A stretch of DNA of 64,000 nt from Saprospiraceae bacterium (GTDB lineage Bacteria > Bacteroidota > Bacteroidia > Chitinophagales > Saprospiraceae). Of this stretch, positions 278-64,000 are shown piece after piece; the first letter of the stretch is position 1, and each line of letters begins with the position of its first letter. The position numbers and the translations under genes were made by a program. The notes beneath the pieces are model-generated. The model was not told the DNA's origin. It was given only the letters and a program-made list of their open reading frames with translations, and made no database searches. Location of the stretch: the NCBI GenBank assembly GCA_016787525.1, contig JAEUUP010000129.1:1-64000 (forward strand), in the 5' to 3' direction.

Positions 278-1453
278 CTATTTTGCAACCGAAAAACGAT
301 AAATCGTTGTGGTTGAATAAGTTTGATTGGGCTTCAAAGTTGTGGTTGGGAATTTTGACTGATTGGGCGAATCGGGATAATGCTCCGTTTCAAGGCAAAA
401 ACCAGAACGTTTTTTGTATATAACGCCACCTTTCCCTTTGATAGTGCCATCTAAAAAATTACCTGTGTAGAACTGAATGGCAGGCTCGGTAGTCAAAACT
501 TCCATTGCGCGACCGCTTTTGGGTTCATAAACGATAGCAGCGGAGCGCATGGCCCCCTCAGTATTTTGACCTTTCAGAATCCAAGCGTGGTCGTAACCAC
601 CACCGAATTTGATTTGCTCGTTCAGGGTATCATTGATTCTTGCCCCTATTTTTTGAGAGGTCAAAAAATCAAAGGGTGTTCCTTCAACAGACTTCAACTC
701 GCCTGTTGGTATCAAAGTTTTGTCAACAGGCAAGAATTTATCACAATTCAAGGCGATTTCATGGTCTAAAATGGTGTTATTCATATCGCCTGTGAGGTTG
801 AAATACGCGTGATTTGTCAAATTGACCACAGTGGTTTTGTCGGTTGTTGCACTGTATTCTATCTTCAAAGAATTGTCTTTCAATAAAGTATAGATAACTT
901 CAACGGATAAATTGCCTGGATAACCTTCTTCCATGTCCTTACTCACATAAGTCAATTTCAAAGTAGGTTGAGGAGATTCTACTATCATGGCATTCCACAC
1001 CACTTTGTCAAAACCTTTGATACCACCGTGTAAGTGATTTGCACCATTATTGGTTGCCAAAGTATAAGTTTTTCCTTCCAAACTGAATTTTCCTTTTGCA
1101 ATACGATTGCCATAACGCCCGACGATTGAGCCAAAATAAGGAACGCCTTTTTCGTATCCACTAATAGAATCACAACCCAAAGTGATGTCTTCGTATTTGC
1201 CGTTGCGATCAGGCGCAGTCCACGAAACGATAGTGCCGCCGTAGTTTGTAATCGTAACGGTCATCCCTGCCACGTTTTTAAGGGTGTAGAGGTCGAGCGA
1301 TTGACCGTCTTTGGTTTTGCCAAAAGACGATTTTTCGATAGTCGGCTGTTTGTTCAAATCTACAATTTGCGACGGTTGCTTTTGCTCAGGATTCTGTTTG
1401 CACGATGCTAAACTTAAAGCAGTTAAGGCTGAGAGGAATAGTATATTTTTCAT
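278..1453 (-). CDS. galM: Aldose 1-epimerase (mutarotase), exported lipoprotein
   Basis: This enzyme interconverts alpha and beta anomers of aldoses. The 391-residue product starts with a lipoprotein signal ending LASC (Cys18), so it should be anchored outside the cytoplasm. Family motifs are visible: ANHLHGG near residue 140 and NHAYFNL near 214 (catalytic histidines), and ETEHYPDSPNQ near the C-terminus (catalytic Glu and binding loop). Length fits family members that carry a leader. It lies close to the araA/symporter genes, which suggests preparation of arabinose or another aldose for uptake, although it is separated from them by a gene on the other strand. One TACTGAGGGG copy (554-563) encodes NTEG in a loop. 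Confidence 0.92.
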   Translation of the reverse strand: MKNILFLSALTALSLASCKQNPEQKQPSQIVDLNKQPTIEKSSFGKTKDGQSLDLYTLKNVAGMTVTITNYGGTIVSWTAPDRNGKYEDITLGCDSISGYEKGVPYFGSIVGRYGNRIAKGKFSLEGKTYTLATNNGANHLHGGIKGFDKVVWNAMIVESPQPTLKLTYVSKDMEEGYPGNLSVEVIYTLLKDNSLKIEYSATTDKTTVVNLTNHAYFNLTGDMNNTILDHEIALNCDKFLPVDKTLIPTGELKSVEGTPFDFLTSQKIGARINDTLNEQIKFGGGYDHAWILKGQNTEGAMRSAAIVYEPKSGRAMEVLTTEPAIQFYTGNFLDGTIKGKGGVIYKKRSGFCLETEHYPDSPNQSKFPTTTLKPNQTYSTTTIYRFSVAK

Positions 1454-1555
1454 TTTAAATAATTGATTTTTAACAGTTTAGTTTTTTATAAAATTATGAA
1501 AGTCTGAACCTAATTCCATTTTAGTGTGTTGTCTTTTAAAAACGGAAGTAGAAAC

Positions 1556-2533
1556 ATGAAAAAATTCATCAAAAAATTAGTCTTTAAATTCATTCTACAA
1601 AAGAAAAAAACGAGTGTACAAGCACTTGAATCTTATTCGGACTACCGATTTGCCAAAGGTTTTCGAGAACTAAAAATTGTCGTGACACAATCTGTCAAAG
1701 ATGCTTTTCTGATACTTTTAGGCATCGCTTCGGCCGCTTTTGGCTTAGAAAGTTTTCTGTTACCCAACAATTTTATTGACGGTGGCGCAACAGGTATTTC
1801 ATTGCTTATTGCAGAACTGACGGGTATTCCCTTGTATTTTCTGCTTATTGGCATCAATTTACCCTTTATTTTTATCGGCTATCATGTCATCGGTAAAGAA
1901 TTTGCAATCAAAACAGCTATTGCAATCAGTCTTTTGGCACTGTGTGTTGCTAACGTTCATTTTCCCGAAATCACACACGACAAGTTTTTAGTGGCACTTT
2001 TTGGTGGTGCTTTTCTCGGTGCGGGCATTGGCTTGTCGGTTCGTGGCGGTGCTGTCATTGACGGTACGGAGGTTTTAGCCATTTTTCTAAGTCGTAAATT
2101 CGGTGTTTCTATTGGTGACATTATCATCATTCTCAATGTCATTATCTTTTCTTTTGCCGCTTATGTTATGTCCATTGACACTGCTTTGTATGCCATGATA
2201 ACCTATTTGGCAGCATCGAAAACCCTCGATTTTGTGATTGATGGTATCGAAGAATATACAGCTGTGACTATTATTTCATGTCATTCAAAAGAAATTAAAG
2301 ATATGATAATCAATGAATTGGGTCACGGCGTTACGATTTATAAAGGTAAAGGCGGTTTTGGTAATCAAGGCGAAAAGAACAGTTTTGATATTCTTTACAC
2401 AGTCGTTACACGCCTTGAATTGAACCGCTTAAATACTGAAATCTTAAAAATTGACACCAACGCTTTTGTTGTGATGAGTACCGTCAAAGACACCAAAGGC
2501 GGTATGATAAAAAAACGACCTATGGCACATTAA
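1556..2533 (+). CDS. YitT-family membrane protein (DUF161 + DUF2179)
   Basis: The 325-residue protein has a positively charged N-terminus, then about five hydrophobic segments (LLGIASAAFGLESFLLPNNF; GGATGISLLI; later membrane helices). A soluble C-terminal DUF2179 domain of about 90 residues contains GHGVTIYKGKGGFG. This is the YitT/YebE architecture; transport function is unproven for the family. A GTG at 1526 would extend the frame by ten codons, but the ATG at 1556 has a purine-rich GGAAG upstream and is preferred. It is divergent from the mutarotase and followed by a strong terminator. Confidence 0.85.
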   Translation: MKKFIKKLVFKFILQKKKTSVQALESYSDYRFAKGFRELKIVVTQSVKDAFLILLGIASAAFGLESFLLPNNFIDGGATGISLLIAELTGIPLYFLLIGINLPFIFIGYHVIGKEFAIKTAIAISLLALCVANVHFPEITHDKFLVALFGGAFLGAGIGLSVRGGAVIDGTEVLAIFLSRKFGVSIGDIIIILNVIIFSFAAYVMSIDTALYAMITYLAASKTLDFVIDGIEEYTAVTIISCHSKEIKDMIINELGHGVTIYKGKGGFGNQGEKNSFDILYTVVTRLELNRLNTEILKIDTNAFVVMSTVKDTKGGMIKKRPMAH

Positions 2534-2547
2534 TAAAACAGTAAGAT

Positions 2548-2592
2548 AAAAAACAGCAAAAGTGATTTTCTTAAAAGCTTTTGCTGTTTTTT
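2548..2592. terminator. Bidirectional rho-independent terminator
   Basis: Perfect 15-nt arms AAAAAACAGCAAAAG (2548-2562) and CTTTTGCTGTTTTTT (2578-2592) flank a 15-nt loop. A-rich and T-rich flanks let it work in both directions between the convergent YitT and symporter genes. Confidence 0.85.
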
Positions 2593-2625
2593 CACCATAA
2601 ATTTGATTTATACTGAGGAGACCTT

Positions 2626-4245
2626 TTAACCCCTAAAACTAATCATCACATAAGCTACAATACCCAAAATAATGAGCGAAACCACAATATCACCCATACT
2701 GTAGCTACCACGATTGCTGTCTTTTTGCTCTTGTGACAAAGTACCAAAGGTCAAACCTTTGACTTGTTCTGAACTCGGTGCAGGCGTTAGTAAACTCACA
2801 CCAACACAGACTGCGATACAGAATAAGAAGAACCATGCAGCAAAAGTTAGAAAGTTCATATTACCAAAAGCGAACAAAAAACCATTTGGATCAAGCGACG
2901 ATTTGCTCAATTCTAAGACCAAACGAATGATTGCCACGCCAAGACCGACCAATAAAGTCGCCATTGCACCTTGCGAATTGATGCGTTTGAAGAATATACC
3001 CAACAAGAAAACAGCAGCAATCGGCGGTGCAATATAGGACTGAACGGATTGCAAATATTCGTACAAAACACCCGATATATTTTGCATAATTGGAATCCAT
3101 AAAATGCCCAAAATTACGACAATAGCGGTTGCAATACGCCCTACTTTGAGTAGTTTCGATTGCTCGGTTTCGGGATATAATTTTTGATAAACGTCCACCG
3201 TAAACAAGGTCGAACAAGAGTTGAAAACTGAAGCCAACGAACTCATCAACGCTGCCAACAAGCCAGCCCCAACAAGCCCCCTCAGTCCTGAAGGCATTTT
3301 TTGCATCAAAAGTGTCGCAAAAGCTTGGTCTGCCGTGTCGTATTGCAATTGTCCGCTATTTTTAAGCGACAAAGCAACGATGCCAGGGATTAGGAAAAGA
3401 AAAACAGGCATTAGTTTGAGTAACGCACCGAAGATTGTGCCACGCCGCCCCTCAGTAATATTTTGCGCTGCCAAAGCTCTTTGTACGATATATTGGTCTG
3501 TACACCAATACCACGTACCGACAATCGTACTCGTGATGACCAAAGGCAACCACGGGAAATTCGGGTCGCTGTTGGGTCGCCACATATTGAGGTAGCCTTC
3601 GGGCAAATTTGCCTTCACACCCGACCAGCCGCCTGCTTCTTTCAAACCGATATAAGTCAGTGTACCTGCGCCGATAACAATCAAAATCGTTTGCACAGCT
3701 TCCGTGTAAACCACTGCGCGCATACCGCCTAAAATCGTGTATGCGCCAGTCAAAATGACCGTAATCAATGCACCAAACCAAAAATCAATATGCAAAAGCG
3801 ACGAAATAACAATACCTCCTGCATAAATCGTCACAGAAACTTTTGTCATAACATAAGCCAACAAAGAAAAAGTCGTCAAAAACCAGCGTGTTTTTGAGTT
3901 GAAACGACGTTCCAAAAACTCTGGCATCGTAAAAACACCACTTCGGAGGTAAAAAGGTAGAAAAACCCAACCCAATGCCAATACGAGCCAAGCGTGTAGT
4001 TCATAAATCAACATCGGAATTTTGCCGCCCGCACCCGCACCAGCCAGACCGACAACGTGTTCAGAGCCAATATTTGATGCAAAAATAGACGCACCAACCA
4101 CAAACCAACCAATGCTGCGCCCTGCTAAAAAGTAGTCTTCAGTGTTTTTCGTTTCTTGTTTGATAACCCAAAAAGCAATACCCAATAAAAGAATAAAATA
4201 GCCAATAATGACCGACCAGTCTAATGTATCAAAGCCTTGTTGCAT
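2626..4245 (-). CDS. Sodium:solute symporter (SSS/SGLT family), probable arabinose importer
   Basis: This inner-membrane Na+/sugar cotransporter has 539 residues and about 14 hydrophobic helices. SSS signatures include EDYFLAGRSIGWFVVGASIF near residue 40, FTMPEFLERRF near 105, YTILGGMRAVVYTEAVQT near 178 and WYWCTDQYIVQRAL near 248. It lies 140 nt downstream of araA on the same strand, so L-arabinose is the likely substrate; this is inferred from context, as SSS substrate cannot be read from sequence. A palindrome at 4350-4380 separates it from araA, so it may depend on read-through or have its own promoter. One motif copy (3448-3457) encodes ITEG. Confidence 0.9.
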   Translation of the reverse strand: MQQGFDTLDWSVIIGYFILLLGIAFWVIKQETKNTEDYFLAGRSIGWFVVGASIFASNIGSEHVVGLAGAGAGGKIPMLIYELHAWLVLALGWVFLPFYLRSGVFTMPEFLERRFNSKTRWFLTTFSLLAYVMTKVSVTIYAGGIVISSLLHIDFWFGALITVILTGAYTILGGMRAVVYTEAVQTILIVIGAGTLTYIGLKEAGGWSGVKANLPEGYLNMWRPNSDPNFPWLPLVITSTIVGTWYWCTDQYIVQRALAAQNITEGRRGTIFGALLKLMPVFLFLIPGIVALSLKNSGQLQYDTADQAFATLLMQKMPSGLRGLVGAGLLAALMSSLASVFNSCSTLFTVDVYQKLYPETEQSKLLKVGRIATAIVVILGILWIPIMQNISGVLYEYLQSVQSYIAPPIAAVFLLGIFFKRINSQGAMATLLVGLGVAIIRLVLELSKSSLDPNGFLFAFGNMNFLTFAAWFFLFCIAVCVGVSLLTPAPSSEQVKGLTFGTLSQEQKDSNRGSYSMGDIVVSLIILGIVAYVMISFRG

Positions 4246-4385: not shown

Positions 4386-5876
4386 CTATCTATAATACAT
4401 TTCATTCCACCGTAGCTCATTTTTCAATGAACGCAAATCAGTTTTTGCATCAATCACTACCGTTTCGAGGTTGAACATCGAAGCAAAATCTTCAAAATAT
4501 TCTGTCGTCAAATTCTGACTATAAACTGTGTGGTGTGCGCCACCTGCATAAATCCACGCCGCACAAGCCGTTGCCGTATCGGGTAAAGGTTGCCACAACA
4601 CCCTCGCAACAGGGAGTTTGGGCAGTTTTTCAAAAGGCTCAACAGCCTCTACTTCATTGATTAACAAGCGAAAACGGTTGCCCATGTCCATCAACGACAC
4701 ATTCAAAGCCGAGCCGCCTGACACATCGAACACCAAACGCACAGGGTCAGCTTTGCCACCAATACCCAACGGATGAATCTCGCAAGAAGCCTTGCCTTTG
4801 GCAATGGAAGGACAGATTTCGAGCATGTGTGCGCCCAAAACAAGGCGGTTTTCTGGGTCAAAATGATAGGTATAGTCTTCCATAAACGAATTGCCGCCTG
4901 CCATACCACTTGCCATCACTTTAGCTGCACGAACAATTGTTGCTGTTTTCCAATCACCTTCTCCGCCAAAACCATAGCCCGAAGCCATGAGTCGTTGCGA
5001 TGCGATGCCAGGCAACTGCACCAAACCATGCAGGTCTTCAAATGTATCTGTAAAGCCTTTGAAATCGCCATCTTCGAGAAAATAGCGCATACCCAATTCG
5101 ATTTTAGCCGCATCGCGCAGCGATTGATGTTGTGCGCCACCTTTGCGCAACGACGTTGCCAAGGTATATTCTGCATCATATTCTGCTACTAATTTGTCAA
5201 TATCGGCATCGCTGACATCATTCACCACTTTGACCAAATCGCCTACGCCATAACCATTGACTGAATAACCAAACGCCATTTCTGCTTCAACTTTATCCCC
5301 CTCAGTAACAGCCACTTGACGCATATTATCGCCAAAGCGACAGAATTTGCCGCCTTGCCAATCGAATCGAGCCGCCGCTGCCCGCATCCACACATTCAGA
5401 CGCTCGTGTACTGAGGGGTCCTGCCAATGCCCGACAACGACTTTACGATTCAACCGCAAACGAGTCATCATAAAACCAAACTCGCGGTCGCCATGTGCCG
5501 ATTGATTGAGGTTCATAAAATCCATGTCAATATCACCCCAAGGAATATCGCGATTGAATTGTGTATGCAAATGACACATCGGTTTTTGAAGCGATTGCAA
5601 ACCACGAATCCACATTTTAGCAGGCGAAAACGTGTGCATCCACGCCACAATGCCAATGCAATTAGCGTCTGTATTCGCCGCTTGACAGATTCTATAAATC
5701 TCATCGGGCGTTTTTACAACAGGCTTGAATGTCACTTGCACAGGTATTTTTTCCGACTGATTAAGTGCTTTTGCAATGGTTTTTGAGTGTTCGGCAACGG
5801 TTTTGAGCGTTTCTTCGCCGTATAAATGTTGGCTGCCTGTGACAAACCAAACTTCTAATTTTTTTAAATCAATCAT
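4386..5876 (-). CDS. araA: L-arabinose isomerase
   Basis: It converts L-arabinose to L-ribulose, the first step of cytoplasmic arabinose catabolism. The 496-residue product matches AraA over its whole length: [12 protein letters not shown] at the N-terminus, GGEGDWKTA and MEDYTYHF (metal-binding Glu positions), [12 protein letters not shown] and [10 protein letters not shown] (metal-binding His positions). All four expected metal ligands are present. A candidate AraR operator (5915-5931) lies 39 nt upstream of the start. The ribulokinase and epimerase are not in the window. Two TACTGAGGGG copies fall inside, encoding VTEG (5298) and DPSV (5409), the latter within the conserved GHWQDP segment. 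Confidence 0.97.
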
Positions 5877-5914
5877 AGAGTAAGTATGATGTATGAGTTA
5901 TGAAATATTTTTTT

Positions 5915-5931: not shown

Positions 5932-5994
5932 TTTTTAGTTTTAAAAGTACCCCCTCAGTATTTAGAAGTTTCTTTCATAAAAATCTGCACCTCT

Positions 5995-6968: not shown

Positions 6969-6978
6969 CCCCTCAGTA
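6969..6978 (-). repeat. TACTGAGGGG copy supplying a stop codon
   Basis: On the minus strand the acetyltransferase ends AAA TAC TGA GGG G, so the TGA stop (plus-strand 6973-6975) is inside the 10-mer. This is the only reading frame of the motif that would interrupt a gene, and here it is used as the gene end. Confidence 0.85.
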
Positions 6979-7533
6979 TTTCCTATCTTTTTGCAATAAG
7001 CCATAAATCACTGTATCTAAAAACTCGCCTTGCCAAAAGAAACTTTCTCTGAAATGTGCCTCTTTTACAAAGCCACATTTTAAAAGCAATCGCTCCGATG
7101 CCACATTTTTAGGGTCAATCACCGCCTCGATAGAGTGACAATTCATCTTCTCGAAAGCAAAATCTAAAATTGGCACTACCGCTTCGTAAGTAATGCCTTG
7201 TTGCCAATAATTCCGATTGAGTTGATAACCTACCTCTACTCGATAATCTTCTTTTTTAGGTCTATAAAATCCGACAGTACCTATCAATTTCGTCTCATTT
7301 TTGAACGAAATACCCCAAGCTAAGCCTTCCTTTTTCTCCATCATCTCTTGCATAGTTTGTATCAAGGCTGCAGCATCTTCCACCGTTTTTGCCAAGGGTC
7401 GTGGAATATATTCCATTACTGAGGGGTCAGAGCGCATCTCAAACATATCAGATGCATCGCTCAAAGTAATTTGCCGCAGCATCAAACGCTCGGTTTCCAT
7501 CGTTGGAAATATGTCAAAGTCAAGTTTTAGCAA
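6973..7533 (-). CDS. GNAT N-acetyltransferase (RimJ/RimL type)
   Basis: The 186-residue protein opens FPTMETERLMLRQITLSDA, the usual start of RimJ-like ribosomal-protein or small-molecule acetyltransferases. It has the acetyl-CoA region (VEVGYQLNRNYWQQGITYEA) and the C-terminal ASERLLLKCGFVKEA. The substrate is unknown. Its start overlaps the end of the upstream membrane-protein gene by 14 nt, indicating translational coupling; the IFPTMETER context supports the upstream ATG. One motif copy (7417-7426) encodes DPSV and a second provides the stop. Confidence 0.88.
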   Translation of the reverse strand: MLKLDFDIFPTMETERLMLRQITLSDASDMFEMRSDPSVMEYIPRPLAKTVEDAAALIQTMQEMMEKKEGLAWGISFKNETKLIGTVGFYRPKKEDYRVEVGYQLNRNYWQQGITYEAVVPILDFAFEKMNCHSIEAVIDPKNVASERLLLKCGFVKEAHFRESFFWQGEFLDTVIYGLLQKDRKY

Positions 7534-8053: not shown

Positions 8054-8081
8054 TCTTGATTCTTTTTTACCCCCTCAGTAA

Positions 8082-9559: not shown

Positions 9560-10666
9560 ATGAAAAAATATTCGACCATTCACTATCAACAATATCTCGA
9601 ACTTGAACAACTCTTGTCCAGCCAAAAACCAAGAAGTGAGGAGTTAGGCGTGCCTGCACATGAGGAAATGTTGTTCATTATCGTGCATCAAGTGTATGAG
9701 CTTTGGTTCAAACAAATCATTCACGAATTAGACTCTGTTGTTGGTATGTTTTCTGACGATTTGGTTGATGAGCGCAGCATTGGAACAGCAGTGGCGCGAC
9801 TTGACCGCGTTATCGAAATCCAAAAACTGCTGATTGGTCAGATTCGCATCATGGAAACCATGACTCCTTTGGATTTTTTGGATTTTAGGAACTATCTTTT
9901 TCCTGCTTCGGGTTTCCAAAGTTTCCAGTTTAGGCTCATCGAAACCTTGCTGGGTTTAGAATCCAGTAAGCGATTGACTTATAACAATCAGCCTTATGAC
10001 TCAGTTTTTCCAGAAAAACAGCGCGATATACTGAGGGGTATCGAATCAGGGAAAACAATATTGCGGGCTGTTGAAGCATGGTTGGAGCGCACACCCTTTT
10101 TGGCATTCAAGGGTTTCGATTTTTTGGAAAACTACCGAAAAGCCGTCGCCACGATGTTGGATAAAGAAAAAAACGCCATTTTAGAAAGCGATTATCTGAC
10201 AGATAGTGAAAAAAGCATGCGTTTGAATATGCTGGGTTCGTCAGATAGTTATTTTCAGTCGGTTTTTGATGCGCAACAACACAATATACTGAGGGGGCAA
10301 GGGCGACTGAGTTTGTCGTACAAAGCGACGATTGCGGCTCTATTGATTACACTCTACAACGAAGAACCCATCCTCCAAATGCCATTCAATCTGCTGAAAC
10401 GATTGGTTGAAATTGATGAAAACTGGACAACTTGGCGGTATCGCCATGCTCAAATGGTGCGGCGCATGTTGGGTCAAAAAATAGGCACTGGAGGTTCTTC
10501 TGGTTTCAACTATTTGGCAGAAACAGCATCAAAACATCAAATTTTTAGCGATTTCCATAATCTTTCGACCTTGCTTATTCCTCGTTCAGAACTACCTCAG
10601 CTACCTAATGACGTGCGGAAAGAGTTAGGTTTCTATTTTTCAAAAGGAAAAAACGAGAGTGTTTAG
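9560..10666 (+). CDS. kynA: Tryptophan 2,3-dioxygenase
   Basis: This haem enzyme oxidises L-tryptophan to N-formylkynurenine. The 368-residue product carries the family hallmarks HYQQYLELEQLL, HEEMLFIIVHQVYELWFKQ (substrate pocket), METMTPLDFLDFRNYLFPAS and YRHAQMVRRMLG (axial haem His), followed by GTGGSSGFNYL. Length is somewhat above that of short bacterial TDOs. No other kynurenine-pathway gene is in the window. Two TACTGAGGGG copies (10029, 10287) are read in the ILRG frame. Confidence 0.95.
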   Translation: MKKYSTIHYQQYLELEQLLSSQKPRSEELGVPAHEEMLFIIVHQVYELWFKQIIHELDSVVGMFSDDLVDERSIGTAVARLDRVIEIQKLLIGQIRIMETMTPLDFLDFRNYLFPASGFQSFQFRLIETLLGLESSKRLTYNNQPYDSVFPEKQRDILRGIESGKTILRAVEAWLERTPFLAFKGFDFLENYRKAVATMLDKEKNAILESDYLTDSEKSMRLNMLGSSDSYFQSVFDAQQHNILRGQGRLSLSYKATIAALLITLYNEEPILQMPFNLLKRLVEIDENWTTWRYRHAQMVRRMLGQKIGTGGSSGFNYLAETASKHQIFSDFHNLSTLLIPRSELPQLPNDVRKELGFYFSKGKNESV

Positions 10667-16816: not shown

Positions 16817-16900
16817 CATCCTGATTTTTGAGCCGCGATACTGAGGGGGTCAAAAGTCAGTCACTCGATTGTTATTTTTTAATTTTAAAAACTAAAATTT

Positions 16901-28366: not shown

Positions 28367-28372
28367 AGGCTT

Positions 28373-49144: not shown

Positions 49145-49807
49145 ATGATAATTTCTTCTATTTCGTACAAAGGTGGTGTTGGAAAAAGCACCTTAGCTCA
49201 AAATTTAGCCGTGGCATTAGCCCTCGACAACCACAAAGTGTGCATCATTGATGCGGACGAAGCAGCTGCGACGACACGCTGGTTTGCCATACGACAAGAA
49301 GCTCAAGCCGAGCCATTTGTGAATGTCGTACAAATGACCGAAGCCAAAGCTATTATCCCCTCAGTAAAAGCACTGTACAAAGACTACGATGCCATCATTA
49401 TTGACGGCCCACCGAGTTTGTTCCCCATCGTGAGCAAAATCATGCTCCTGAGCCACATTATCCTAATCCCGATTGTGCCTAAGGGCGGTTCCGATTATTG
49501 GGTAACGGAAGATTTTTTAGTGCGTTACAATGAAGTACAGGAAGAAAAAGAGGAGCGTACACCCGCCTATTTTTTACTCAATATGTACAAAGAGTCCTTC
49601 AACTTACACAAAGCTGTTGTCGCAGGATTGACAAATTTAGGCGAGCAGTATGGTGTTCATTTTCTCAAAAGCAAGTTGCACGAGCGTGTAGCGTATGGCG
49701 AATCAAACGTAAAAGGGGTTTCCGTGATGGAATATACTGACCCACGAGCGCAAAAAGAAATCAGAAGTTTGATGCAAGAAATCGTAGAAATTGCTCAAAA
49801 ATCATAG
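49145..49807 (+). CDS. parA: ParA-family partition ATPase (ParF-like)
   Basis: The 220-residue Walker-type ATPase has the deviant Walker A KGGVGKST near residue 10, Walker A' IIDADEAAATTRWF and Walker B IIIDGPPSL. Its small size and lack of an N-terminal HTH place it with ParF/type Ib partition ATPases. An RHH partner follows 24 nt downstream. It moves replicons along the nucleoid by ATP cycling. It carries one interspersed motif copy (49357, IIPSVKAL), so the module is not foreign to the motif. Confidence 0.93.
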   Translation: MIISSISYKGGVGKSTLAQNLAVALALDNHKVCIIDADEAAATTRWFAIRQEAQAEPFVNVVQMTEAKAIIPSVKALYKDYDAIIIDGPPSLFPIVSKIMLLSHIILIPIVPKGGSDYWVTEDFLVRYNEVQEEKEERTPAYFLLNMYKESFNLHKAVVAGLTNLGEQYGVHFLKSKLHERVAYGESNVKGVSVMEYTDPRAQKEIRSLMQEIVEIAQKS

Positions 49808-52482: not shown

Positions 52483-52547
52483 TAACTCTCATACTGAGGG
52501 GTGTCTTTGGGCTTTTCAGCAAGTGTTCAAACACAATTCAAAACAGC

Positions 52548-54577: not shown

Positions 54578-56794
54578 ATGAAAAATATCATTTCTGTTTT
54601 TTATCACAAATCTGTCAGAGCAGGTTTGTGCCTTTCTGTCCTCGCTCTCATGTTGGCATGGACTTTACCTGACGACAAACCAACCGTTTTCTTGTGTGGC
54701 GACTCCACAATGGCAAACAAAGCACTCATTGATGCACCTGAAACAGGGTGGGGGATGGTTTTTCCTGAGTTTTTCACAGATGCAGTGCGCATCGAAAATC
54801 ATGCGGTCAATGGACGCTCAACCAAAAGTTTCCGAACGTTGGGGCATTGGAAAGGGGTGATGGATAAAGTGAAACAAGGCGACTATGTGGTTCTGCAATT
54901 TGGGCATAATGACCAAAAAGAAGGCGATACAACACGTTATGCAGCCCCACAAACCGACTACAAAAAGAACCTAACCCGATTTATTGAAGAAATAAAAGCC
55001 AAAGGAGCAAATCCTATTTTGGCTACTCCCGTCAATCGTCGCAAATTCGATGACAAAGGTGTCTTCGTAGATCAACATGGAGAGTACCCCTCAGTAGTGC
55101 GGGCTTTGGCGAAAGAACTGCACATTCCACTATTGGATATGCACCAAAAAAGCCAAAAAGTGATAGAAGCACATGGTGTAGAAGGGTCGAAAAATATTTT
55201 TATGCACTTCATCGGTGGTTATTACCTTAAACACCCAAAAGGTATCGAAGACAATACCCATTTCAGTCGTTACGGTGCTGAATTGATGGCAAGTTTGGCA
55301 GCCGAATCTTTGGTTGAAATAGGTCATCCGTTGCGTAGTTTTCTAAAAAAATCCCCTTTTGAAGAAAAATATGCTTTTGAACTGCCTAAAATTTGCTTGC
55401 CCGCTTTTCGGCGCGATACATACAATATTGTCCGTTATGGCGCAAAACCCGATGGCGTGACACTCAATACGCAAGCCATCAATCAAGCCATTGATATGGC
55501 ACACCAAGCAGGCGGAGGTGTGGTACTCATTCCCTCGGGTGTGTGGTTGACGGCAGGCATCGTCTTGAAGAGTAACGTCAATTTACATCTGAACAAAGGT
55601 GCATTGGTGCTTTTCACCGACGATAAAAAGGCATTTCCATTGGTTGTCGCAACCTATGAAGGTGTTGAAACCTATCGCTGTCAAGCACCTATTTCAGCAA
55701 CAGATGCTGAAAATATTGCCGTTACAGGCGACGGAATCTTCGATGGCAACGGGCAAGTGTGGCGTATGCTCAAACGCAGTAAAGTAAATGAGGCCGAATG
55801 GAAAAAAATAACGGCTCTCAAAGGAGGTGTTTTTGATGAGAAAAAAGAAAACTGGTACCCTTCCGAACAGTCCTACAAAGGCAATCAATGGTATAAGCCA
55901 GGACTTTTGATGTCGTCGAAAGAAGAATATGAAACCATACATGACTTTTTGCGCCCCAATATGGTGGTCATCAATCGGTGCAAAAAAGTATTGCTCGAAG
56001 GCGTTACGTTCCAAAACTCACCTGCGTGGACAATGCACCCACTCTTGACGGAACATTTGACCATCAGAAATGTACTGTCGAAAGCACCGAGTTTTGCTCA
56101 AAATAGTGATGCTTTGGACTTAGAGTCGTGCCGCAACGTTCTTGTTGAAGGCTGCCATTTCGATGTAGGCGATGATGGCATCACGCTCAAGTCTGGGCGC
56201 GACGAATTTGGTCGAAAAAGAGGTATTCCTACCGAAAATGTCATCATCAAAGACACCAAAGTGTATCAAGCACATGGCGGATTTGTGATTGGCTCCGAAA
56301 TGTCAGGTGGTGTACGCAATATTTTTGTATCCAATTGCACATTCATGGGTTCAGATATTGGCTTACGTTTCAAAACCACACGCGGTAGGGGCGGAATTGT
56401 CGAAAATATATACATTTCAGATATTACCATGAGCGATATTCCAGCCGAAGCTATTTTGTTCGATATGTACTACAACGGCAAAGAAGCGGCAGAAGCACTC
56501 AAAAACCCACAAGGCGATCTAAAACCTGTCAACGAAGGGACCCCTCAGTTCCGCAACTTCTTTATTCGCAACATCACTTGCCGTGGGGCGCAATATGGCG
56601 TTTTTGTTCAAGGGTTGCCTGAAATGAATGTGCAGAATGTTGTGATTGAGAATGCCGTTCTACAAGCCAAAAAAGCCATGTTCTGTACAGCAGGGGAGGG
56701 CATTCAGTTAAAAAATGTACAGTTTATTGCAGAAGAGAAAGACATCAAAGTGGTTAATAGTAAAAAAGTTGTAGTCAACGGGGTCAAATATTGA
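54578..56794 (+). CDS. CE12 acetylesterase fused to GH28 polygalacturonase
   Basis: The 738-residue exported protein has an SGNH-hydrolase module (about 30-250) with GDSTMANKA (nucleophile Ser), QFGHNDQKEG and DNTHFSRYG (catalytic Asp/His), as in rhamnogalacturonan acetylesterases (CE12). The GH28 beta-helix (about 275-738) has QNSDALDLESC, DVGDDGITLKSGRD and HGGFVIGSEMSGG with the catalytic Asp and His residues. Deacetylation and hydrolysis of pectin backbone would be coupled. It is flanked upstream by a LacI-type operator. One full motif copy (55087) and one one-mismatch copy (56541) are inside. Confidence 0.92.
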   Translation: MKNIISVFYHKSVRAGLCLSVLALMLAWTLPDDKPTVFLCGDSTMANKALIDAPETGWGMVFPEFFTDAVRIENHAVNGRSTKSFRTLGHWKGVMDKVKQGDYVVLQFGHNDQKEGDTTRYAAPQTDYKKNLTRFIEEIKAKGANPILATPVNRRKFDDKGVFVDQHGEYPSVVRALAKELHIPLLDMHQKSQKVIEAHGVEGSKNIFMHFIGGYYLKHPKGIEDNTHFSRYGAELMASLAAESLVEIGHPLRSFLKKSPFEEKYAFELPKICLPAFRRDTYNIVRYGAKPDGVTLNTQAINQAIDMAHQAGGGVVLIPSGVWLTAGIVLKSNVNLHLNKGALVLFTDDKKAFPLVVATYEGVETYRCQAPISATDAENIAVTGDGIFDGNGQVWRMLKRSKVNEAEWKKITALKGGVFDEKKENWYPSEQSYKGNQWYKPGLLMSSKEEYETIHDFLRPNMVVINRCKKVLLEGVTFQNSPAWTMHPLLTEHLTIRNVLSKAPSFAQNSDALDLESCRNVLVEGCHFDVGDDGITLKSGRDEFGRKRGIPTENVIIKDTKVYQAHGGFVIGSEMSGGVRNIFVSNCTFMGSDIGLRFKTTRGRGGIVENIYISDITMSDIPAEAILFDMYYNGKEAAEALKNPQGDLKPVNEGTPQFRNFFIRNITCRGAQYGVFVQGLPEMNVQNVVIENAVLQAKKAMFCTAGEGIQLKNVQFIAEEKDIKVVNSKKVVVNGVKY

Positions 56795-56795: not shown

Positions 56796-56805
56796 CCCCT
56801 CAGTA
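56796..56805 (-). repeat. TACTGAGGGG copy abutting a terminator
   Basis: The motif begins 2 nt after the CE12-GH28 stop and overlaps the first bases of the terminator stem at 56804. Compare the arrangement at 20367-20376. Confidence 0.85.
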
Positions 56806-56841: not shown

Positions 56842-57102
56842 CATCCAATTCCTGCCAAAAACCCGTGCCGATGTGCTGCACAACGCTTCATTTCGTTTCA
56901 TAGACACTTCATTTAAGTTTTTATACGCTTTATTATCCTAAATTTCGATAACGATACTGAGGGGTGCATCTTTGCACCATCAAAAGCGAAAACAAATTTT
57001 TATTGCCAATGAAACAGCTTTGCCTCGCTTTTGCCATGAAGCCAATGAAAATGTTTTTTTTAAATCCAATTGTTTAACAAATTTAATTTTTTTTAAAAAC
57101 CA

Positions 57103-58359: not shown

Positions 58360-59133
58360 TTAACGCTCCCACCAACGTTTGAAGGCGGGGGCTTTTTCGC
58401 GACTAATATCTTGAGACATACTGAGGGGGGCCTTTAAATGCAAAACCAATTTTTGATTTTCTAAAGGTTTGATACTTTGAATGGCATCAATGTGAATGAT
58501 ACTTTGGCGATTGGCACGGTAATAAAACTTAGGATTCAGCAATTCTTCGATTTCATCAAGCGTGGTATAATCGGTGATGAAACGCTCACCGCTGAATGTG
58601 TAGATATAAATCAAACTATCGCGCAGAAAAAGGGCAATGTCTTTGGTCATAATCGGTACCCAATTGCGTTTGACGCTGACCACAAATTTTTCCTTATAGA
58701 TAGGTATTTTTTTATCATTACTTTGGATGGTTTGCATGAGGTCGGGTAGGGTATTGGGCGCGCTATCCATACTACCGATGATAAGGCGTGCTTTTTGAAT
58801 AGCCTTTTTCAAGTCTTCGGCATCAACAGGCTTGAGCAAATAATCAATGCCATTGACTTTGAACGCTCTGACAGCATACTCATCATAAGCGGTTGTGAAA
58901 ATGATGGGACATTTAAGCTGAAAATGTTCAAAAAGTTCAAAACTGATACCATCGCTGAGTTGAATATCCATAAACATCAAGTCTGGTTCAGCGTTGTTGA
59001 GCAGCCAGCGTTTGGCTGTTTTGAGACTGGGTAGAATCTCAATAACTTGAACATCGTCGGCGACAGCCGTTATTTTACTGTGCAATTGGCGTGCAATGAG
59101 TGATTCGTCTTCAATAATTATCGCTTTTATCAT
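58360..59133 (-). CDS. LytTR-family response regulator
   Basis: The 257-residue regulator has a receiver domain (IIIEDESLIARQLHSKI; phospho-acceptor Asp in LMFMDIQLSDG; Lys in YLLKPVD) and a C-terminal LytTR DNA-binding domain (about 155-257: YRANRQSIIHIDAIQSIKPL). It overlaps the end of the sensor gene by 4 nt, indicating translational coupling. Targets are unknown, as no LytTR direct repeats were identified. One motif copy (58419), APLSMSQ, near the C-terminus. Confidence 0.93.
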   Translation of the reverse strand: MIKAIIIEDESLIARQLHSKITAVADDVQVIEILPSLKTAKRWLLNNAEPDLMFMDIQLSDGISFELFEHFQLKCPIIFTTAYDEYAVRAFKVNGIDYLLKPVDAEDLKKAIQKARLIIGSMDSAPNTLPDLMQTIQSNDKKIPIYKEKFVVSVKRNWVPIMTKDIALFLRDSLIYIYTFSGERFITDYTTLDEIEELLNPKFYYRANRQSIIHIDAIQSIKPLENQKLVLHLKAPLSMSQDISREKAPAFKRWWER

Positions 59134-62100
59134 AAGAGTGGAATTTTTACAATGAAATGAGTGTCGTTTTCTATTATCTCAACAGGTGTATTGGTGAGGT
59201 AACGATAGAGATTGACAAAATTGACCAAACCTCGTTTGTTGCTCGTGGCAACAAAGTTTTTCTTTTGCAAATTGTTGCGCACAATAAGCGTTTGCCCCCC
59301 CTCTCCAGTAGGAGTTCTTTGAACAGTATTTTCGGTAAAAATATCAATCACCAGCGGTGTTTCGCTGTCAATGATATTGTGTTTCATAGCATTCTCGATG
59401 AGATTTTGGAGGGTTACAGGCACTATTTTTTGTTGCAAAGCCATTTCAGAAACAGTGATATTGACAATCAATCCTTCTTCAAAACGCGTTTTTTGCAGTT
59501 TTACAAAGTTTTCAGCAAACTTAATTTCATCGCTGAGCTGTACCGTTTCAGATTCACTGCTTTTGAGGATATACCGATATGTTTTACTCAAACTTTCTAA
59601 GAAATCGTTGGCAATTTTGCTATCAATCTGAATCAAACTACTGAGGGAGGTCAATGAGTTGAACAGAAAATGTGGATTGAGCTGTTGTTTCAAACCTTCG
59701 TACTGCATCACTGATTTTTCTTTTTCGAGCAATTGAGCCTTGCGTTGTAAGTCGGCAAGTCGCTCTCTTTGCTCGTTGCGATTGCGCCAATAAGCATAAA
59801 CTAAACCACCGAACAAGGCAAACCACAAAGCCCAAAACCAAAAAGACTTGTAGAAAACCACATCCACATGCACATCAATTGTTTTTTCTTCAACCTGCCA
59901 ATCATTCACATTGAGGCTGGCTTTGTAGCGAAACGTATAGTTGCCGCCCGACAAATTGGTGTAAACAACCTTTGGGTCTTGTGTAATATGCCATTCTGTG
60001 TCGAATCCATCGAGTTTGTAGGCAAACCACGTTTGTGAGGGATTGAAATAATTGAGAGCTACCAGATTGAGCGAAATGGAGTTTTCATGTGGTTGAAGTT
60101 TAATAGCAATATGTGCTCCACCGTCATCTTCCACCAATTGCTTTTCTACGTTTGCCGCAGAAAAATGCGAAATATAGCAATTGAGTTTGCGCTTTTCAGT
60201 TGTATAATTCAATGGATTGAAACGGATATAACCTTTTTGTGTGGGCATAATGATGTCGCCCGAAGACGTTGTATAGCTTTCATGTTCTGTAAATGCCAAT
60301 GTGGGCAAACCATCTTGCAGACCAAAATGCGTAAAACTTTGACGACTGCTGTCCAAAAGCATTAAGCCACGGGTTGTACCAATCCAAATGCGATTCAAGG
60401 CATCCACAGCGAGACAAGACGCGGAATTACTACACAGTCCATTATCAGTGTTGTAAGTTTTGAATAAGTTGGTTTCGACGTTGATTTCCGTCACACCATG
60501 GCTTGTTGCAATCCAAATATGACCATTTAGGTCTTCTTTGATGGACATAACCAGATTGCCTGCGATGGAATTGACACCGTTACTTTTCCAATGGTACGTT
60601 TTTTGAGTGTTAGGGTCGTACATGCCCAAGCCTTTCTCACTGAAACCCAACCAATACCGTCCTTTGCTGTCGTGTAGAAACGACCAACCTTCTAAGCCCA
60701 CAAAGCGTTTCAAATAAGGATGTTCGCTAATGCTCTTCAAGGTCAGAGTTTGAGGGTCGAATTGATAATAACCATCGCCATCTATTGTTGAAAACCAAAA
60801 CTGATTATTTCTATCCTTAAATAAACGCATATAACTCAATTTAGGCAATTGTTTGTCAAAAAACAGCATTTTGCTGGTCTGAGTATCGTATCGGTTAAGT
60901 CCTTTCGACGTGACGACCCAGATATTGTCTTGATTGTCGCTTATGACTTGTCGGATAGAGTTGTAGGCGATGACTGGAGGTTTGTTGAGTTCATTGCGCC
61001 ATTCACGATAGGTTTTTGTTTTTATATCGTATTTCGACACGCCATCCACTGCTCCAAACCACAGGTTTTTGTCCTTGTCTTCTACCACAGAGCGCGCCCA
61101 ACGACGGCTTCGGATGCCGAAATCTTTGCCAAAAGGCAAAATGGTTTCAAATAGATTGCGTTCGGGGTGGAAATAGTTGATGCCTTCATTGCCACCGAGC
61201 CAAATAGTGCCTTCTTTGTCGCAAAAAATGCTCAAATGCACATTGCACGACGGAGTCCAAGTCTTTTGTTCATCCAATACATATTGCTTAAAACCATTGG
61301 TTTCAGGCAGATATTGCAACAAACCAATGTGTTTGGTACTAATCCAAATACCGTTTTTCTTATCTTTAAGAACGAAATACTCTCTTGACAAAGCAGGGTC
61401 AAGAGTCAGTAAAGGCGCATCATAGACTTCCAAATCTTGAAAATCAGCCGTCAACCGCACAACTTTGGGCATACTCAAAGTGGTTAACCACAAACGATTC
61501 TGTTCGTCGAAACCCAACGACCCAATGGATAAATTGCCAATAGACGCAGTTTTGATACTGAGGGGTAGCTTCCACGCTTTTTCTGTACCACAATCAAAAA
61601 CAATGATACCTTGATCCGAACCAATGTACAAACGGTTGTCTTTCAAAACAGCTTCTGTTAAAGGCGCAGCTAACAAACTATCTTTTTCACCATATCGAAC
61701 AGTTTTATTACTGAGGGGGGTATATTTAATCAGACCTTTGTCTGTCATCATAAAAATATCTTTACCCATCGCTATCATGCGATAAATAGTTAGTCCGTTG
61801 AAGGTTTCAATGCGATTAAAATTGTTTTTAGCATAGTTTAACTCCGCCAAACCACTGTCGAACCCAAAAAACAAACGTCCCGACCCATCTGTCACCATGC
61901 TGTAAACGATGCCCGACAAAGGCGAGTGATTGTTGCCTGAACGATAGGCGTATGTTCTGATTTTTTGCCCATCGTACCGATTCAATGCCCCCAAACTACC
62001 GAACCACATATAGCCCCACTTGTCCTGCCCAATCATCTGTATATGCCCATCGTGCAAACCATCGGCAACCGTTAGGTGTCGAAAGCTAATGGGTGGCGTT

Positions 62101-62577: not shown

Positions 62578-62872
62578 AACACAATAAATTGAGCATAAAC
62601 GGAATGCTTTTCTGCAAATATCCATGAAGTTTACTAAAAAGCGGCAAACATTTTATGCGAAGCGTAGCGAACTTCAAATAAACCGTTGTACAACAACTGT
62701 CAGATTGAGCCAGTCGAAGAGCCGATTTTACTGAGGGGGTAAATAATAGTCGAGCAAAAAAGCCGAAGCATCGAAAAGCAAGGAAAAAAATAAGCATAGA
62801 ATAAAAAAAACAAAAAGAAACGCTTTTCTTTACCAGTGGTTTTAAGTGTAAAATCAACTAAATTTTATCAAA

Positions 62873-63385
62873 ATGAAAAAGAAACTTTTATTAGGTTTAG
62901 CGGCTGTTTTGGTCATCATTCAGTTTTTCCCTATCACAAAAAACAATTCAGATGACCAACTTTATGATATTTCAAAAGCCTACGACGTGCCAGAGGAGGT
63001 CGCAGGTATTTTAAAAGTGGCTTGCAACGATTGCCACAGCAACAAAACAGAATATCCTTGGTATGCCAAAATCCAACCCGTAGCTTGGTGGCTGCAACAC
63101 CACGTGGATGAAGGCAAACGCGAACTCAACTTTTCAGAATTTACAACCCGTAAAATTGCTGTTCAGAACCATAAATTGGAAGAAATCGTCGAACAAGTGG
63201 AGGCAAATGAGATGCCTTTGCCCTCTTATACTTGGTTGGGTTTACATTCTGGAGCAAAACTGAGTGCAGAGCAAAAGCAAAAACTCATCACTTGGGCAAA
63301 AGCGCAAATGGACACTTTGAAAGCACACTATCCAGCCGATAGTTTGATATTGAAACGACCACAAGGCCCGCCACCAGCTCACTAG
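62873..63385 (+). CDS. Haem-binding domain protein (Haem_bd, CxxCH)
   Basis: The 170-residue protein has an N-terminal membrane segment or signal (LLLGLAAVLVIIQFFPI) followed by a haem c attachment motif in ACNDCHSNKTEYPWYAKIQP and WWLQHHVDEGKRELNFSEF. This is the Haem_bd family, found as small periplasmic c-type cytochrome-like proteins in Bacteroidota. Haem binding is expected from CNDCH. It is divergent from the globin. The 295-bp gap contains one motif copy (62729). Confidence 0.88.
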   Translation: MKKKLLLGLAAVLVIIQFFPITKNNSDDQLYDISKAYDVPEEVAGILKVACNDCHSNKTEYPWYAKIQPVAWWLQHHVDEGKRELNFSEFTTRKIAVQNHKLEEIVEQVEANEMPLPSYTWLGLHSGAKLSAEQKQKLITWAKAQMDTLKAHYPADSLILKRPQGPPPAH

Positions 63386-63402
63386 AATTGGGATTGAAAA
63401 AG

Positions 63403-63440
63403 ATAAAACCTTGCAAAAACGGTGTATTTTGCAAGGTTTT
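63403..63440 (+). terminator. Terminator after the haem-binding gene
   Basis: Arms AAAACCTTGCAAAA and TTTTGCAAGGTTTT flank a 10-nt loop. Confidence 0.8.
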
Positions 63441-63463
63441 GTACTCACTAAAAGCACTTAACA

Positions 63464-64000
63464 ATGAAAAACTATTTCTTTTTCATACTCTTATTTGCTT
63501 TAAGCTGCACAAATATAAGTGAGCCGAAAAAAGCAGAAGAGTCACCTAAAAAAGCAGTAAGCTTTGAACAACTCTCAGGGAAGTATGGCTTATTTACTGA
63601 GGGGTTGAATGGTCCGATGGATAAATGTGTTAAATCCGAGGGCGATAAAATCACGATGACAGCGGGTAAAGAAACCGATTTTTTTATTGAACCTGGGTCG
63701 CCTCCATACGAATTTGCCAACGCGCCTTTGCTTTTGATGCCCGTTGACAATACCAAACCTTTTACTTTTTCATTCAAAACGACACCTGTTCACACCGTCA
63801 AATACGATGCAGGCATGGCTTTTTTGTATGTGGATAATAAGCATTGGCTCAAATTCGCCTTTGAAGCAGATGAAAGACTCAATCACCGCCTCGTCACCGT
63901 GAAAACAAAAGACTTTTCGGACGACAATAACCATGATGCTGTTAAAAGCAGCAGCGTATTTATGAAAATCTCATCTGATACGAAAGTGGTTGGTTTTTAT
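63464..64000 (+). CDS. DUF1349 domain lipoprotein, cut by the window edge
   Basis: The first 179 codons are present. There is a lipoprotein signal (FFILLFALSC), and then a beta-rich domain with KETDFFIEPGSPPYEFANAP and AGMAFLYVDNKHWLKFAFE, matching DUF1349 (concanavalin-like fold). These are often linked to carbohydrate use, without known catalysis. One motif copy (63595) encodes FTEG. The 3' end is beyond the window. Confidence 0.8.
   Translation, partial: MKNYFFFILLFALSCTNISEPKKAEESPKKAVSFEQLSGKYGLFTEGLNGPMDKCVKSEGDKITMTAGKETDFFIEPGSPPYEFANAPLLLMPVDNTKPFTFSFKTTPVHTVKYDAGMAFLYVDNKHWLKFAFEADERLNHRLVTVKTKDFSDDNNHDAVKSSSVFMKISSDTKVVGFY

What the first reader, a model, noticed from the sequence alone, without database searches (positions are those of the whole stretch)
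554..63604. A hugely over-represented, non-palindromic 10-mer, TACTGAGGGG: candidate DNA-uptake sequence or other genome-wide recognition signal
About 69 exact copies occur in 64 kb over both strands (41 plus, 28 minus), one per ~0.93 kb. Random expectation for a given 10-mer on two strands is about 2 x 64000 / 4^10, or 0.12. The length, asymmetry and spacing are like the uptake sequences of Neisseria (DUS) and Haemophilus (USS), roughly one per kb. Cyanobacterial HIP1 has a similar density but is palindromic. I know of no such signal described in Bacteroidota. Alternatives are a Chi-like recombination site, a methylation or restriction site, or a nucleoid-protein site. The flanks show an extended consensus, WTACTGAGGGG(G0-3)T.
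Basis: partly seen in the sequence, partly recalled or inferred. Interest (0 to 1): 0.95.

Follow-up and report, generated by a model that had tools for sequence, protein, structure and literature searches.

The report
Self-DNA uptake tag in Bacteroidota
A bacterium that is probably a Bacteroidota carries 6,920 copies of one 10-letter DNA word, far more evenly spread than chance and set in DNA with a 10.5-letter A+T rhythm, which likely labels its own DNA so that its kin would take it up and recombine it.

Summary
Markov models expect below 1 copy in 922 kb where 938 occur. None of 656 other genomes of the same order exceeds 14 copies, but even the only held "genus mate" is distant (ComEC 38% identical). 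A Pasteurellaceae-type USS genome run through the same scripts also has helically phased A+T flanks and, more weakly, such spacing. Best reading: an uptake-signal-like self-recognition site maintained by biased uptake and recombination. It is not filed under USS/DUS: no type IV pilus ATPase over cut-off, prepilin or secretin was found; ComEC is present. A DNA-wrapping protein is the main rival. Uptake itself is untested.

The parts
554..563 (-). TACTGAGGGG copy 1
3448..3457 (-). TACTGAGGGG copy 2
5298..5307 (-). TACTGAGGGG copy 3
5409..5418 (+). TACTGAGGGG copy 4
5951..5960 (-). TACTGAGGGG copy 5
6969..6978 (-). TACTGAGGGG copy 6
7417..7426 (+). TACTGAGGGG copy 7
8071..8080 (-). TACTGAGGGG copy 8
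10029..10038 (+). TACTGAGGGG copy 9
10287..10296 (+). TACTGAGGGG copy 10
11311..11320 (-). TACTGAGGGG copy 11
12609..12618 (-). TACTGAGGGG copy 12
14066..14075 (+). TACTGAGGGG copy 13
14809..14818 (+). TACTGAGGGG copy 14
15856..15865 (+). TACTGAGGGG copy 15
16288..16297 (+). TACTGAGGGG copy 16
16839..16848 (+). TACTGAGGGG copy 17
18207..18216 (+). TACTGAGGGG copy 18
18780..18789 (+). TACTGAGGGG copy 19
19929..19938 (-). TACTGAGGGG copy 20
20367..20376 (+). TACTGAGGGG copy 21
20849..20858 (+). TACTGAGGGG copy 22
21481..21490 (+). TACTGAGGGG copy 23
22108..22117 (-). TACTGAGGGG copy 24
22863..22872 (-). TACTGAGGGG copy 25
23627..23636 (-). TACTGAGGGG copy 26
24205..24214 (-). TACTGAGGGG copy 27
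24502..24511 (+). TACTGAGGGG copy 28
26557..26566 (+). TACTGAGGGG copy 29
27116..27125 (+). TACTGAGGGG copy 30
28076..28085 (-). TACTGAGGGG copy 31
28910..28919 (+). TACTGAGGGG copy 32
29456..29465 (-). TACTGAGGGG copy 33
29877..29886 (-). TACTGAGGGG copy 34
30575..30584 (+). TACTGAGGGG copy 35
31901..31910 (-). TACTGAGGGG copy 36
31949..31958 (-). TACTGAGGGG copy 37
33256..33265 (-). TACTGAGGGG copy 38
33515..33524 (+). TACTGAGGGG copy 39
33779..33788 (+). TACTGAGGGG copy 40
36575..36584 (-). TACTGAGGGG copy 41
38687..38696 (+). TACTGAGGGG copy 42
38820..38829 (-). TACTGAGGGG copy 43
39711..39720 (+). TACTGAGGGG copy 44
40108..40117 (-). TACTGAGGGG copy 45
40636..40645 (+). TACTGAGGGG copy 46
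41911..41920 (+). TACTGAGGGG copy 47
42508..42517 (+). TACTGAGGGG copy 48
43930..43939 (+). TACTGAGGGG copy 49
45309..45318 (+). TACTGAGGGG copy 50
45452..45461 (+). TACTGAGGGG copy 51
45867..45876 (+). TACTGAGGGG copy 52
47581..47590 (-). TACTGAGGGG copy 53
48048..48057 (-). TACTGAGGGG copy 54
48678..48687 (+). TACTGAGGGG copy 55
49357..49366 (-). TACTGAGGGG copy 56
51198..51207 (+). TACTGAGGGG copy 57
51606..51615 (+). TACTGAGGGG copy 58
52274..52283 (+). TACTGAGGGG copy 59
52492..52501 (+). TACTGAGGGG copy 60
54059..54068 (-). TACTGAGGGG copy 61
55087..55096 (-). TACTGAGGGG copy 62
56796..56805 (-). TACTGAGGGG copy 63
56955..56964 (+). TACTGAGGGG copy 64
58419..58428 (+). TACTGAGGGG copy 65
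61556..61565 (+). TACTGAGGGG copy 66
61709..61718 (+). TACTGAGGGG copy 67
62729..62738 (+). TACTGAGGGG copy 68
63595..63604 (+). TACTGAGGGG copy 69; averaged over 581 copies of the genome the core sits in A+T-phased flanks that reach about 66 bp upstream and 115 bp downstream

Best explanation
The word TACTGAGGGG, present 6,920 times on both strands of this 7.27-Mb genome and flanked by A+T-rich steps every 10.5 bp, is likely the core of an uptake-signal-like self-DNA tag that would be recognised at the cell surface by a receptor not yet known and would spread and persist because DNA carrying it is taken up and recombined more often. Shown here: the enrichment, the strict core, the phased flanks, the distance-dependent spacing, the mild shortage in coding DNA, presence of ComEC, and no detectable pilus ATPase over cut-off, prepilin or secretin. 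Inferred: that the cell is naturally competent, that a surface receptor reads the core while the phased flanks ease bending of the DNA during entry, that ComEC carries the strand inwards, and that drive by biased uptake, not direct benefit of each site, keeps the copies. The outer-membrane machine would have to be other than a type IV pilus.
For: Density one per 1.05 kb, balanced strands. Same-script comparison with a genome (G911, unnamed) that holds 1,270 copies of the Pasteurellaceae USS core AAGTGCGGT: its 435 fetched sites also have helically phased A+T flanks (10.5-bp power 104 downstream and 11.7 upstream; largest of 300 control draws 3.5), against 17 downstream and 85 upstream for 583 own sites (largest control 3.0). 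The strong side lies 5' of TACTGAGGGG, that is 3' of CCCCTCAGTA, a layout like USS read on the other strand. Chance of a next copy rises from 0.15 per kb within 50 bp to 1.6 per kb at 1-2 kb; in G911 it goes from 0.2-0.4 per kb at 50-500 bp to 0.65-0.90 beyond 1 kb. Coding shortage: 728 of 938 copies in called genes against 805 expected; 15 copies in 26.3 kb of three small integrase contigs, 0.57 per kb. Flank phasing holds separately for copies on the gene's strand, against it, and between genes. ComEC present. Literature: R. anatipestifer (Bacteroidota) is naturally competent although no T4P or T4SS homologues were found (PMC6533540, passages); R. columbina prefers its own DNA (PMC7965970, section 16 read); in H. 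influenzae, rigid and slightly bent AT tracts beside the USS core go with better uptake (PMC7811141, passages).
Against: No type IV pilus ATPase over the cut-off, no prepilin, no secretin in this genome. ComEC is in 12 of 12 family genomes tested, so it does not mark this species. No other genome with this word (656 others) and no comparable dispersed word in the 49 other genomes sampled. Close inverted pairs are not enriched, unlike G911, where 35 of 427 gaps are under 50 bp. One-mismatch copies are rarer (89 to 583) than in G911 (260 to 435). The G911 flanks are not a perfect match: two blocks about 12 bp apart (power 120 at 12 bp and 127 at 14 bp, above 104 at 10.5) and no rhythm beyond +40 (0.7), whereas the own rhythm goes on; the spacing effect in G911 is weaker (Weibull shape 1.05 against 1.46; beyond 500 bp not distinguishable from random). 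Four other contigs with integrase hits have ordinary density, 0.96-1.10 per kb. No receptor found.
Confidence: 0.55

Rival explanations
1. The word is the binding core of an abundant DNA-wrapping protein (a nucleoid-architecture protein, or a topoisomerase with unusual specificity) that needs a site about every kilobase; the phased flanks are its wrapped DNA.
For: The rhythm spans roughly 180 bp and is carried by WW and AA/TT steps, as expected for wrapped DNA, and reaches further than in the USS genome; neighbours under 100 bp are rare, 11 gaps against a mean of 57 in simulation; in published maps gyrase sites have 10-11-bp periodic GC flanks (PMC12393610, PMC12324340, passages).
Against: The published E. 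coli gyrase motif is 130 bp with a 36-bp aperiodic centre and palindromic core preferences, whereas here the rhythm is strongest right beside an asymmetric core (-24 to -4). Spacing regularity goes beyond the footprint: gaps beyond 300 bp, less 300, have CV 0.83, below all 5,000 exponential simulations. A USS genome shows phased flanks too.
Confidence: 0.24
2. A Chi-like site that switches a RecBCD/AddAB-type nuclease from degradation to repair.
For: G-rich 3' half, high density, genome-wide.
Against: No clear polarity: 476 copies on the G-rich strand, 449 on the other; 374 with and 354 against the gene. Chi is read on unwound single strands (recalled), so 10.5-bp phased duplex flanks are unexpected. 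RecBCD/AddAB genes were not searched.
Confidence: 0.08
3. A methylation, restriction or phage-defence label (modified or bound self-DNA is spared).
For: Would also favour a word present throughout self-DNA; the window's contig, which carries a Rep3-type initiator, bears it at full density.
Against: Restriction sites are as a rule avoided, not enriched (recalled); phased flanks of 180 bp are not expected of a methylase site; no methylation data to test.
Confidence: 0.05
4. A tiny mobile or inserted element, or an assembly artefact.
For: Few mutated copies (89 one-mismatch to 583 exact in 555 kb) could mean a recent burst.
Against: No clear target-site duplication in 180 copies: 3-base matches 4 against 3.7 in shuffled pairs, 4-base 3 against 1.1, none longer; zero of 728 genic copies in the one frame that would put a stop in the gene; in three proteins aligned to 120 homologues each, the ten copies bring no inserted residues that the displayed homologues lack.
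Confidence: 0.03

Closest known systems
Uptake signal sequence (USS) of Pasteurellaceae, Hin type (AAGTGCGGT)
   Same: Short asymmetric core about once per 1-1.5 kb on both strands; helically phased A+T flanks strong on one side of the core; chance of a next copy rises with distance; measured in the same scripts on genome G911, whose kind is inferred from its 1,270 copies.
   Different: Unrelated core; longer phasing; stricter core; more even spacing; no close inverted pairs; no type IV pilus ATPase over cut-off, prepilin or secretin found; other phylum.
DNA uptake sequence (DUS) of Neisseriaceae (GCCGTCTGAA; word recalled)
   Same: 10-bp asymmetric word at similar density on both strands (1,892 copies in N. 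meningitidis, PMC7811141, passage).
   Different: Unrelated word; its receptor ComP is a type IV minor pilin (PMC12061091, abstract start in listing); flank phasing of DUS could not be measured, no DUS-rich genome among 369 drawn.
HIP1 of cyanobacteria (GCGATCGC)
   Same: Genome-wide dispersed word.
   Different: HIP1 is palindromic and linked to orphan methylases (PMC4390886, abstract start in listing); this word is asymmetric.
Gyrase site motif (Topo-Seq)
   Same: 10-11-bp periodic composition in flanks (passages).
   Different: 36-bp aperiodic centre and palindromic core preference; here the rhythm abuts a strict asymmetric core.
Chi sites (features recalled)
   Same: G-rich short word, genome-wide.
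   Different: No clear strand polarity here; phased duplex flanks.

Membership tests
USS/DUS uptake sequences | Over-represented asymmetric 9-12-bp word, about one per kb, both strands | tested here: met
   6,920 copies, 3,457/3,463; reversed control 3
USS/DUS uptake sequences | Helically phased A+T flanks beside the core (USS) | tested here: met
   10.5-bp power 85 and 17 against control maximum 3.0; G911 USS 11.7 and 104; extent and exact period differ
USS/DUS uptake sequences | Under-represented in coding DNA | tested here: met
   728 of 938 in called genes against 805 expected; the effect is mild
USS/DUS uptake sequences | Under-represented in newly acquired DNA | tested here: inconclusive
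   15 copies in 26.3 kb of three small integrase contigs (0.57 per kb), but four other contigs with integrase hits have 0.96-1.10 per kb
USS/DUS uptake sequences | Type IV pilus machine with secretin and minor-pilin receptor | tested here: not met
   PF00437: four matches in G000, all partial and below cut-off; over it in 3 of 12 genomes, none of them G000, by partial matches in frames of 875-984 aa; PF07963 0 of 12 genomes; PF00263 0 of 12; the assembly is 98% complete
USS/DUS uptake sequences | ComEC inner-membrane channel | tested here: met
   G000:C7:138523-139329, PF03772 E 4.4e-55, DUF4131 + Competence domains in 687 of 722 residues; also in 11 of 11 other family genomes tested
USS/DUS uptake sequences | Close inverted pairs (terminator-like) as in many USS/DUS genomes | tested here: not met
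   Of 43 gaps under 200 bp, 13 are between opposite strands; G911 has 35 of 427 gaps under 50 bp (their orientation was not counted)
USS/DUS uptake sequences | Shared word or dialects among close relatives | tested here: inconclusive
   0-14 copies in 656 other genomes; 49 sampled genomes without a like word; but no close relative is held
USS/DUS uptake sequences | Preferential uptake of DNA that carries the word | not testable with these tools
   Needs an experiment
Chi | Polarity with replication or strand skew | tested here: not met
   476 versus 449 copies by GC skew
HIP1 | Palindromic octamer | tested here: not met
   TACTGAGGGG is not palindromic (sequence)
Gyrase site motif | Periodic arms separated by a 36-bp aperiodic centre | tested here: not met
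   Rhythm strongest at -24 to -4 beside the core

The most novel reading that the evidence does not exclude
A third, independently evolved self-DNA recognition system for natural transformation: a Bacteroidota lineage that tags its genome with about 7,000 bendable 10-bp signals and imports tagged DNA through an outer-membrane machine that is neither a type IV pilus nor any secretin-based system.
Probability: 0.45. Interest if true: 0.93.

Novelty: new variant of a known kind. Interest (0 to 1): 0.88.

Why it matters
In the papers seen here, uptake sequences are described from Pasteurellaceae and Neisseriaceae. A word of equal density in a Bacteroidota would show that self-tagging evolved again, without pili, and would give a direct handle on the unknown outer-membrane DNA importer of Bacteroidota such as R. 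anatipestifer, which transforms although no T4P or T4SS homologues were found (PMC6533540): whatever protein binds this word with phased flanks is a candidate receptor. It also offers a test of whether bent flanks are a general requirement of uptake signals. If it proves to be a wrapping protein instead, it would be the most sequence-specific bacterial chromatin signal that I know of (recalled judgement).

Tried and rejected
Early misreading: one search listed about 30 forward hits in a row on contig C6; one search showed both strands; the list prints only the first places of each strand. Tandem or mobile origin: no clear target-site duplication, no copies in the stop-bearing frame. First estimate of almost no coding shortage (150 of 181 against 155 expected) was replaced by the larger count (728 of 938 against 805). 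Dialect hunt: 8 family genomes and 40 of family and order, 18-20 kb each, and 120 kb of G001: no dispersed word of this kind; the G294 word GATACAGG comes mostly (9 of 12) from three runs of three spaced 492-501 bp and the G001 words are clustered. Homologue peptides: in the sortilin-like, GH88 and PGI proteins the closest metagenomic homologues often share the peptides that the word encodes. I first read this as a clade sharing the word; since the sites were chosen by the query, shared ancestry explains it as well, and peptides at other sites are not clearly in excess, so it is left open. A DUS comparison failed: none of 369 drawn genomes is rich in GCCGTCTGAA. Mirror-dyad search gave several near-equal centres and is not used. 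Rfam on seven own loci, three of them the small integrase contigs: no match.

Full report
Observation. The window holds 69 exact copies of TACTGAGGGG, 41 on + and 28 on -. The genome (G000, 7,267,541 bases in 169 contigs; the window is C98:1-64000) holds 3,457 + 3,463 = 6,920; the word read backwards occurs 3 times. In 922 kb fetched from ten contigs there are 938 copies, while Markov models of order 2 to 5 trained with the word masked expect 0.2 to 0.8; it is the commonest 10-mer there. Only 62 of 439,453 pairs of copies have flanks at least 70% alike, so the copies are not pieces of longer repeats.

Where it is found. I counted the word in 119, 398 and 396 genomes of the same genus, family and order (overlapping draws, handles G000 to G656, so 656 other genomes; the family and order draws are samples of larger groups). 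None has more than 14 copies. The only held genome of the same genus has 3, but it is far away: its ComEC is 38% identical to the own one, and the 14 own genes of 686 that match 120 kb of it over at least 80% of their length do so at 28 to 76% identity. So the held genomes cannot say whether close relatives share the word. Named organisms among the protein matches are Bacteroidota; for phosphoglucose isomerase, six of the eight entries with an organism name are Saprospiraceae MAGs, the best at 83%, while other proteins give Chitinophagaceae, Spirosoma and others. The phylum and family are inferences from these names.

Core. In 555 kb there are 583 exact copies and 89 one-mismatch copies. Of the 89, 34 change the first T, 21 the eighth base and 16 the tenth; the second to sixth bases (ACTGA) take 4. 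In the same script the USS core of genome G911 has 435 exact and 260 one-mismatch copies.

Flanks. The base before the core is A in 60% and T in 24%; the base after is G in 60% and T in 34% of 583. Further out A+T content oscillates with a 10.5-bp period locked to the core: peaks near -1, -11, -22, -33, -43, -54 and -65, and near +15, +25, +36, +46, +58, +67 and +78, fading beyond about +115 (581 copies; the outer peaks are weak one by one). Power at 10.5 bp is 90 upstream (-40 to -2) and 17 downstream; the largest of 500 random draws is 4.8 and 3.6. With 938 copies it is 7.6 at -80 to -42, 6.2 at +80 to +118 and 1.7 at -110 to -80. WW and AA/TT steps carry it, TA does not. It holds for 374 copies on the gene's strand, 354 against it and 210 between genes, so codons do not cause it.

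Spacing. Over 928 gaps (mean 973 bp) the CV is 0.72, below all of 5,000 exponential simulations. The chance of a next copy is 0.15 per kb within 50 bp, 0.5 at 100-200 bp, 0.8-0.9 at 200-500 bp, 1.2 at 500-1,000 bp and 1.6 at 1-2 kb, with a dip to 1.1 at 2-2.5 kb and about 2 beyond. Gaps beyond 300 bp, less 300, still have CV 0.83, so steric exclusion alone does not explain it. Of 43 gaps below 200 bp, 30 join copies on the same strand and 13 on opposite strands: no terminator-like inverted pairs in excess.

Genes. I called 686 genes by open frames and hexamer score (rough; no trained gene finder). 728 of 938 copies lie inside, 805 expected: 0.92 per kb in coding and 1.6 per kb in non-coding DNA (my arithmetic). 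Five frames are used (263, 173, 116, 111, 65); the sixth, which would put TGA in frame, has none. In three proteins with ten copies (sortilin-like, GH88, PGI) aligned to 120 sequences each (121 with the query for PGI), the encoded peptide is shared, the query included, by 18, 28, 22, 29 and 1, by 12, 8 and 9 and by 13 and 9 sequences, largely among the closer homologues. So copies mostly sit where close homologues already have fitting residues, and at least one (GTEG at residue 823 of the 1,033-aa protein) changed them. Three small contigs with integrase genes (C43, C11, C10; 26.3 kb; C10 and C11 look alike) hold 15 copies, 0.57 per kb, but the four other contigs with integrase hits (C7, C86, C36, C99) have 0.96 to 1.10. 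Of the longest gaps looked at, one holds a signal-recognition-type GTPase gene and one a STAND NTPase gene in DNA of 30% GC; others hold ordinary genes.

Yardstick. To ask what a real uptake sequence looks like in the same scripts I drew 369 genomes of the class of a Dyella genome and counted AAGTGCGGT; one, G911 (2.0 Mb), has 1,270. In 676 kb of it, 435 sites have strong A+T blocks at +11 to +15 and +23 to +27 and weaker 10.5-bp phasing upstream (power 104 and 11.7; largest of 300 control draws 3.5). The downstream blocks are about 12 bp apart (power is higher still at 12 and 14 bp) and nothing is left beyond +40. Its gaps, apart from 35 of 427 under 50 bp, show a like but weaker rise in chance with distance, 0.2-0.4 per kb at 50-500 bp to 0.65-0.90 beyond 1 kb; beyond 500 bp it cannot be told from random. 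That G911 is a Pasteurellaceae is inferred from the word count. So phased flanks and distance-dependent spacing are shared between the new word and a known kind of uptake sequence, and the new word differs by a stricter core, longer phasing, more even spacing and no close pairs.

Machinery. ComEC is present with the DUF4131 and Competence domains (687 of 722 residues read, the first ones lie beyond the fetched piece), but it is in 12 of 12 family genomes. T2SSE ATPase matches in G000 are four, partial and below the family's cut-off; three other family genomes pass it narrowly with partial matches in frames of 875-984 aa, which I take for other AAA ATPases. Prepilin N_methyl 0 of 12, Secretin 0 of 12. 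These searches ring in 14, 8 and 6 of 14 control genomes. By these tests there is no type IV pilus or secretin. R. anatipestifer is a published case of a competent Bacteroidota without T4P or T4SS homologues (PMC6533540, passages). R. columbina DNA competes for its own uptake while R. anatipestifer and E. coli DNA at equal amount do not; a k-mer hunt there in three Flavobacteriaceae lists only A+T-rich words, whose role the authors leave open (PMC7965970, section 16). In H. influenzae the rigid, slightly bent AT tracts beside the core are held to help uptake, and USS are scarcer in coding, rRNA and new DNA; modelling of drive by biased uptake is cited there (PMC7811141, passages).

Reading. 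The simplest account that covers the strict core, the phased flanks, the absence of strand polarity, the even spread and the shortage in genes is a self-DNA tag for uptake, kept by drive. What does not fit is the missing pilus machine, so I do not file it under USS or DUS. The main rival is a wrapping protein. E. coli gyrase has periodic arms but with a 36-bp aperiodic centre (PMC12393610, passages), which is not what is seen. Chi is disfavoured by strand balance (476 to 449).

Novelty. Searches of the open PMC library gave no description of this word (18 papers with the letters; by title and abstract start none concerns a bacterial genome signal) and no uptake sequence in Bacteroidota. Lists were capped at 20 of 26, 15 of 86 and 20 of 203 papers and seen as titles and abstract starts; of PMC2346458 I read the first of three parts. 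Subscription papers and preprints outside that library were not searched.

Noticed in passing
window 50623-50734 and 51004-52482: A 22-bp tandem repeat (5 copies) lies just upstream of a gene with Rep3 initiator domains, like the iterons of a plasmid origin; the window's contig may be a plasmid or second replicon, yet it carries the word at full density (1.12 per kb over 104 kb).
   Followed up: partly
window 44260-44463 and 44558-44781: A 108-bp unit repeated about twice and a 22-bp array of about 10 copies (AAACCTATATCGCAACCTTACC) between called genes.
   Followed up: no
window 26239-38446 and 54578-56794: Pectin/arabinan use genes: pectate lyase, GH88, arabinofuranosidase, SusC/SusD-type pair, GH28; L-arabinose isomerase and a NUDIX regulator with an AraR-like domain at 4386-8780.
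   Followed up: no
L266:11500-15426 and L253:1436-3916: STAND NTPase genes (one with an FGE-sulfatase domain) in word-poor DNA, one stretch at 30% GC, suggesting acquired islands.
   Followed up: partly
L040, L042 and L044 (G001): Clustered repeats around the hairpin-like word GGTGCTACGCACC in the genome labelled same genus; this genome is far from the window's own (ComEC 38% identical).
   Followed up: partly
L165 (G294): GATACAGG in three runs of three spaced 492-501 bp, a sign of a large repeated gene or protein repeat.
   Followed up: partly
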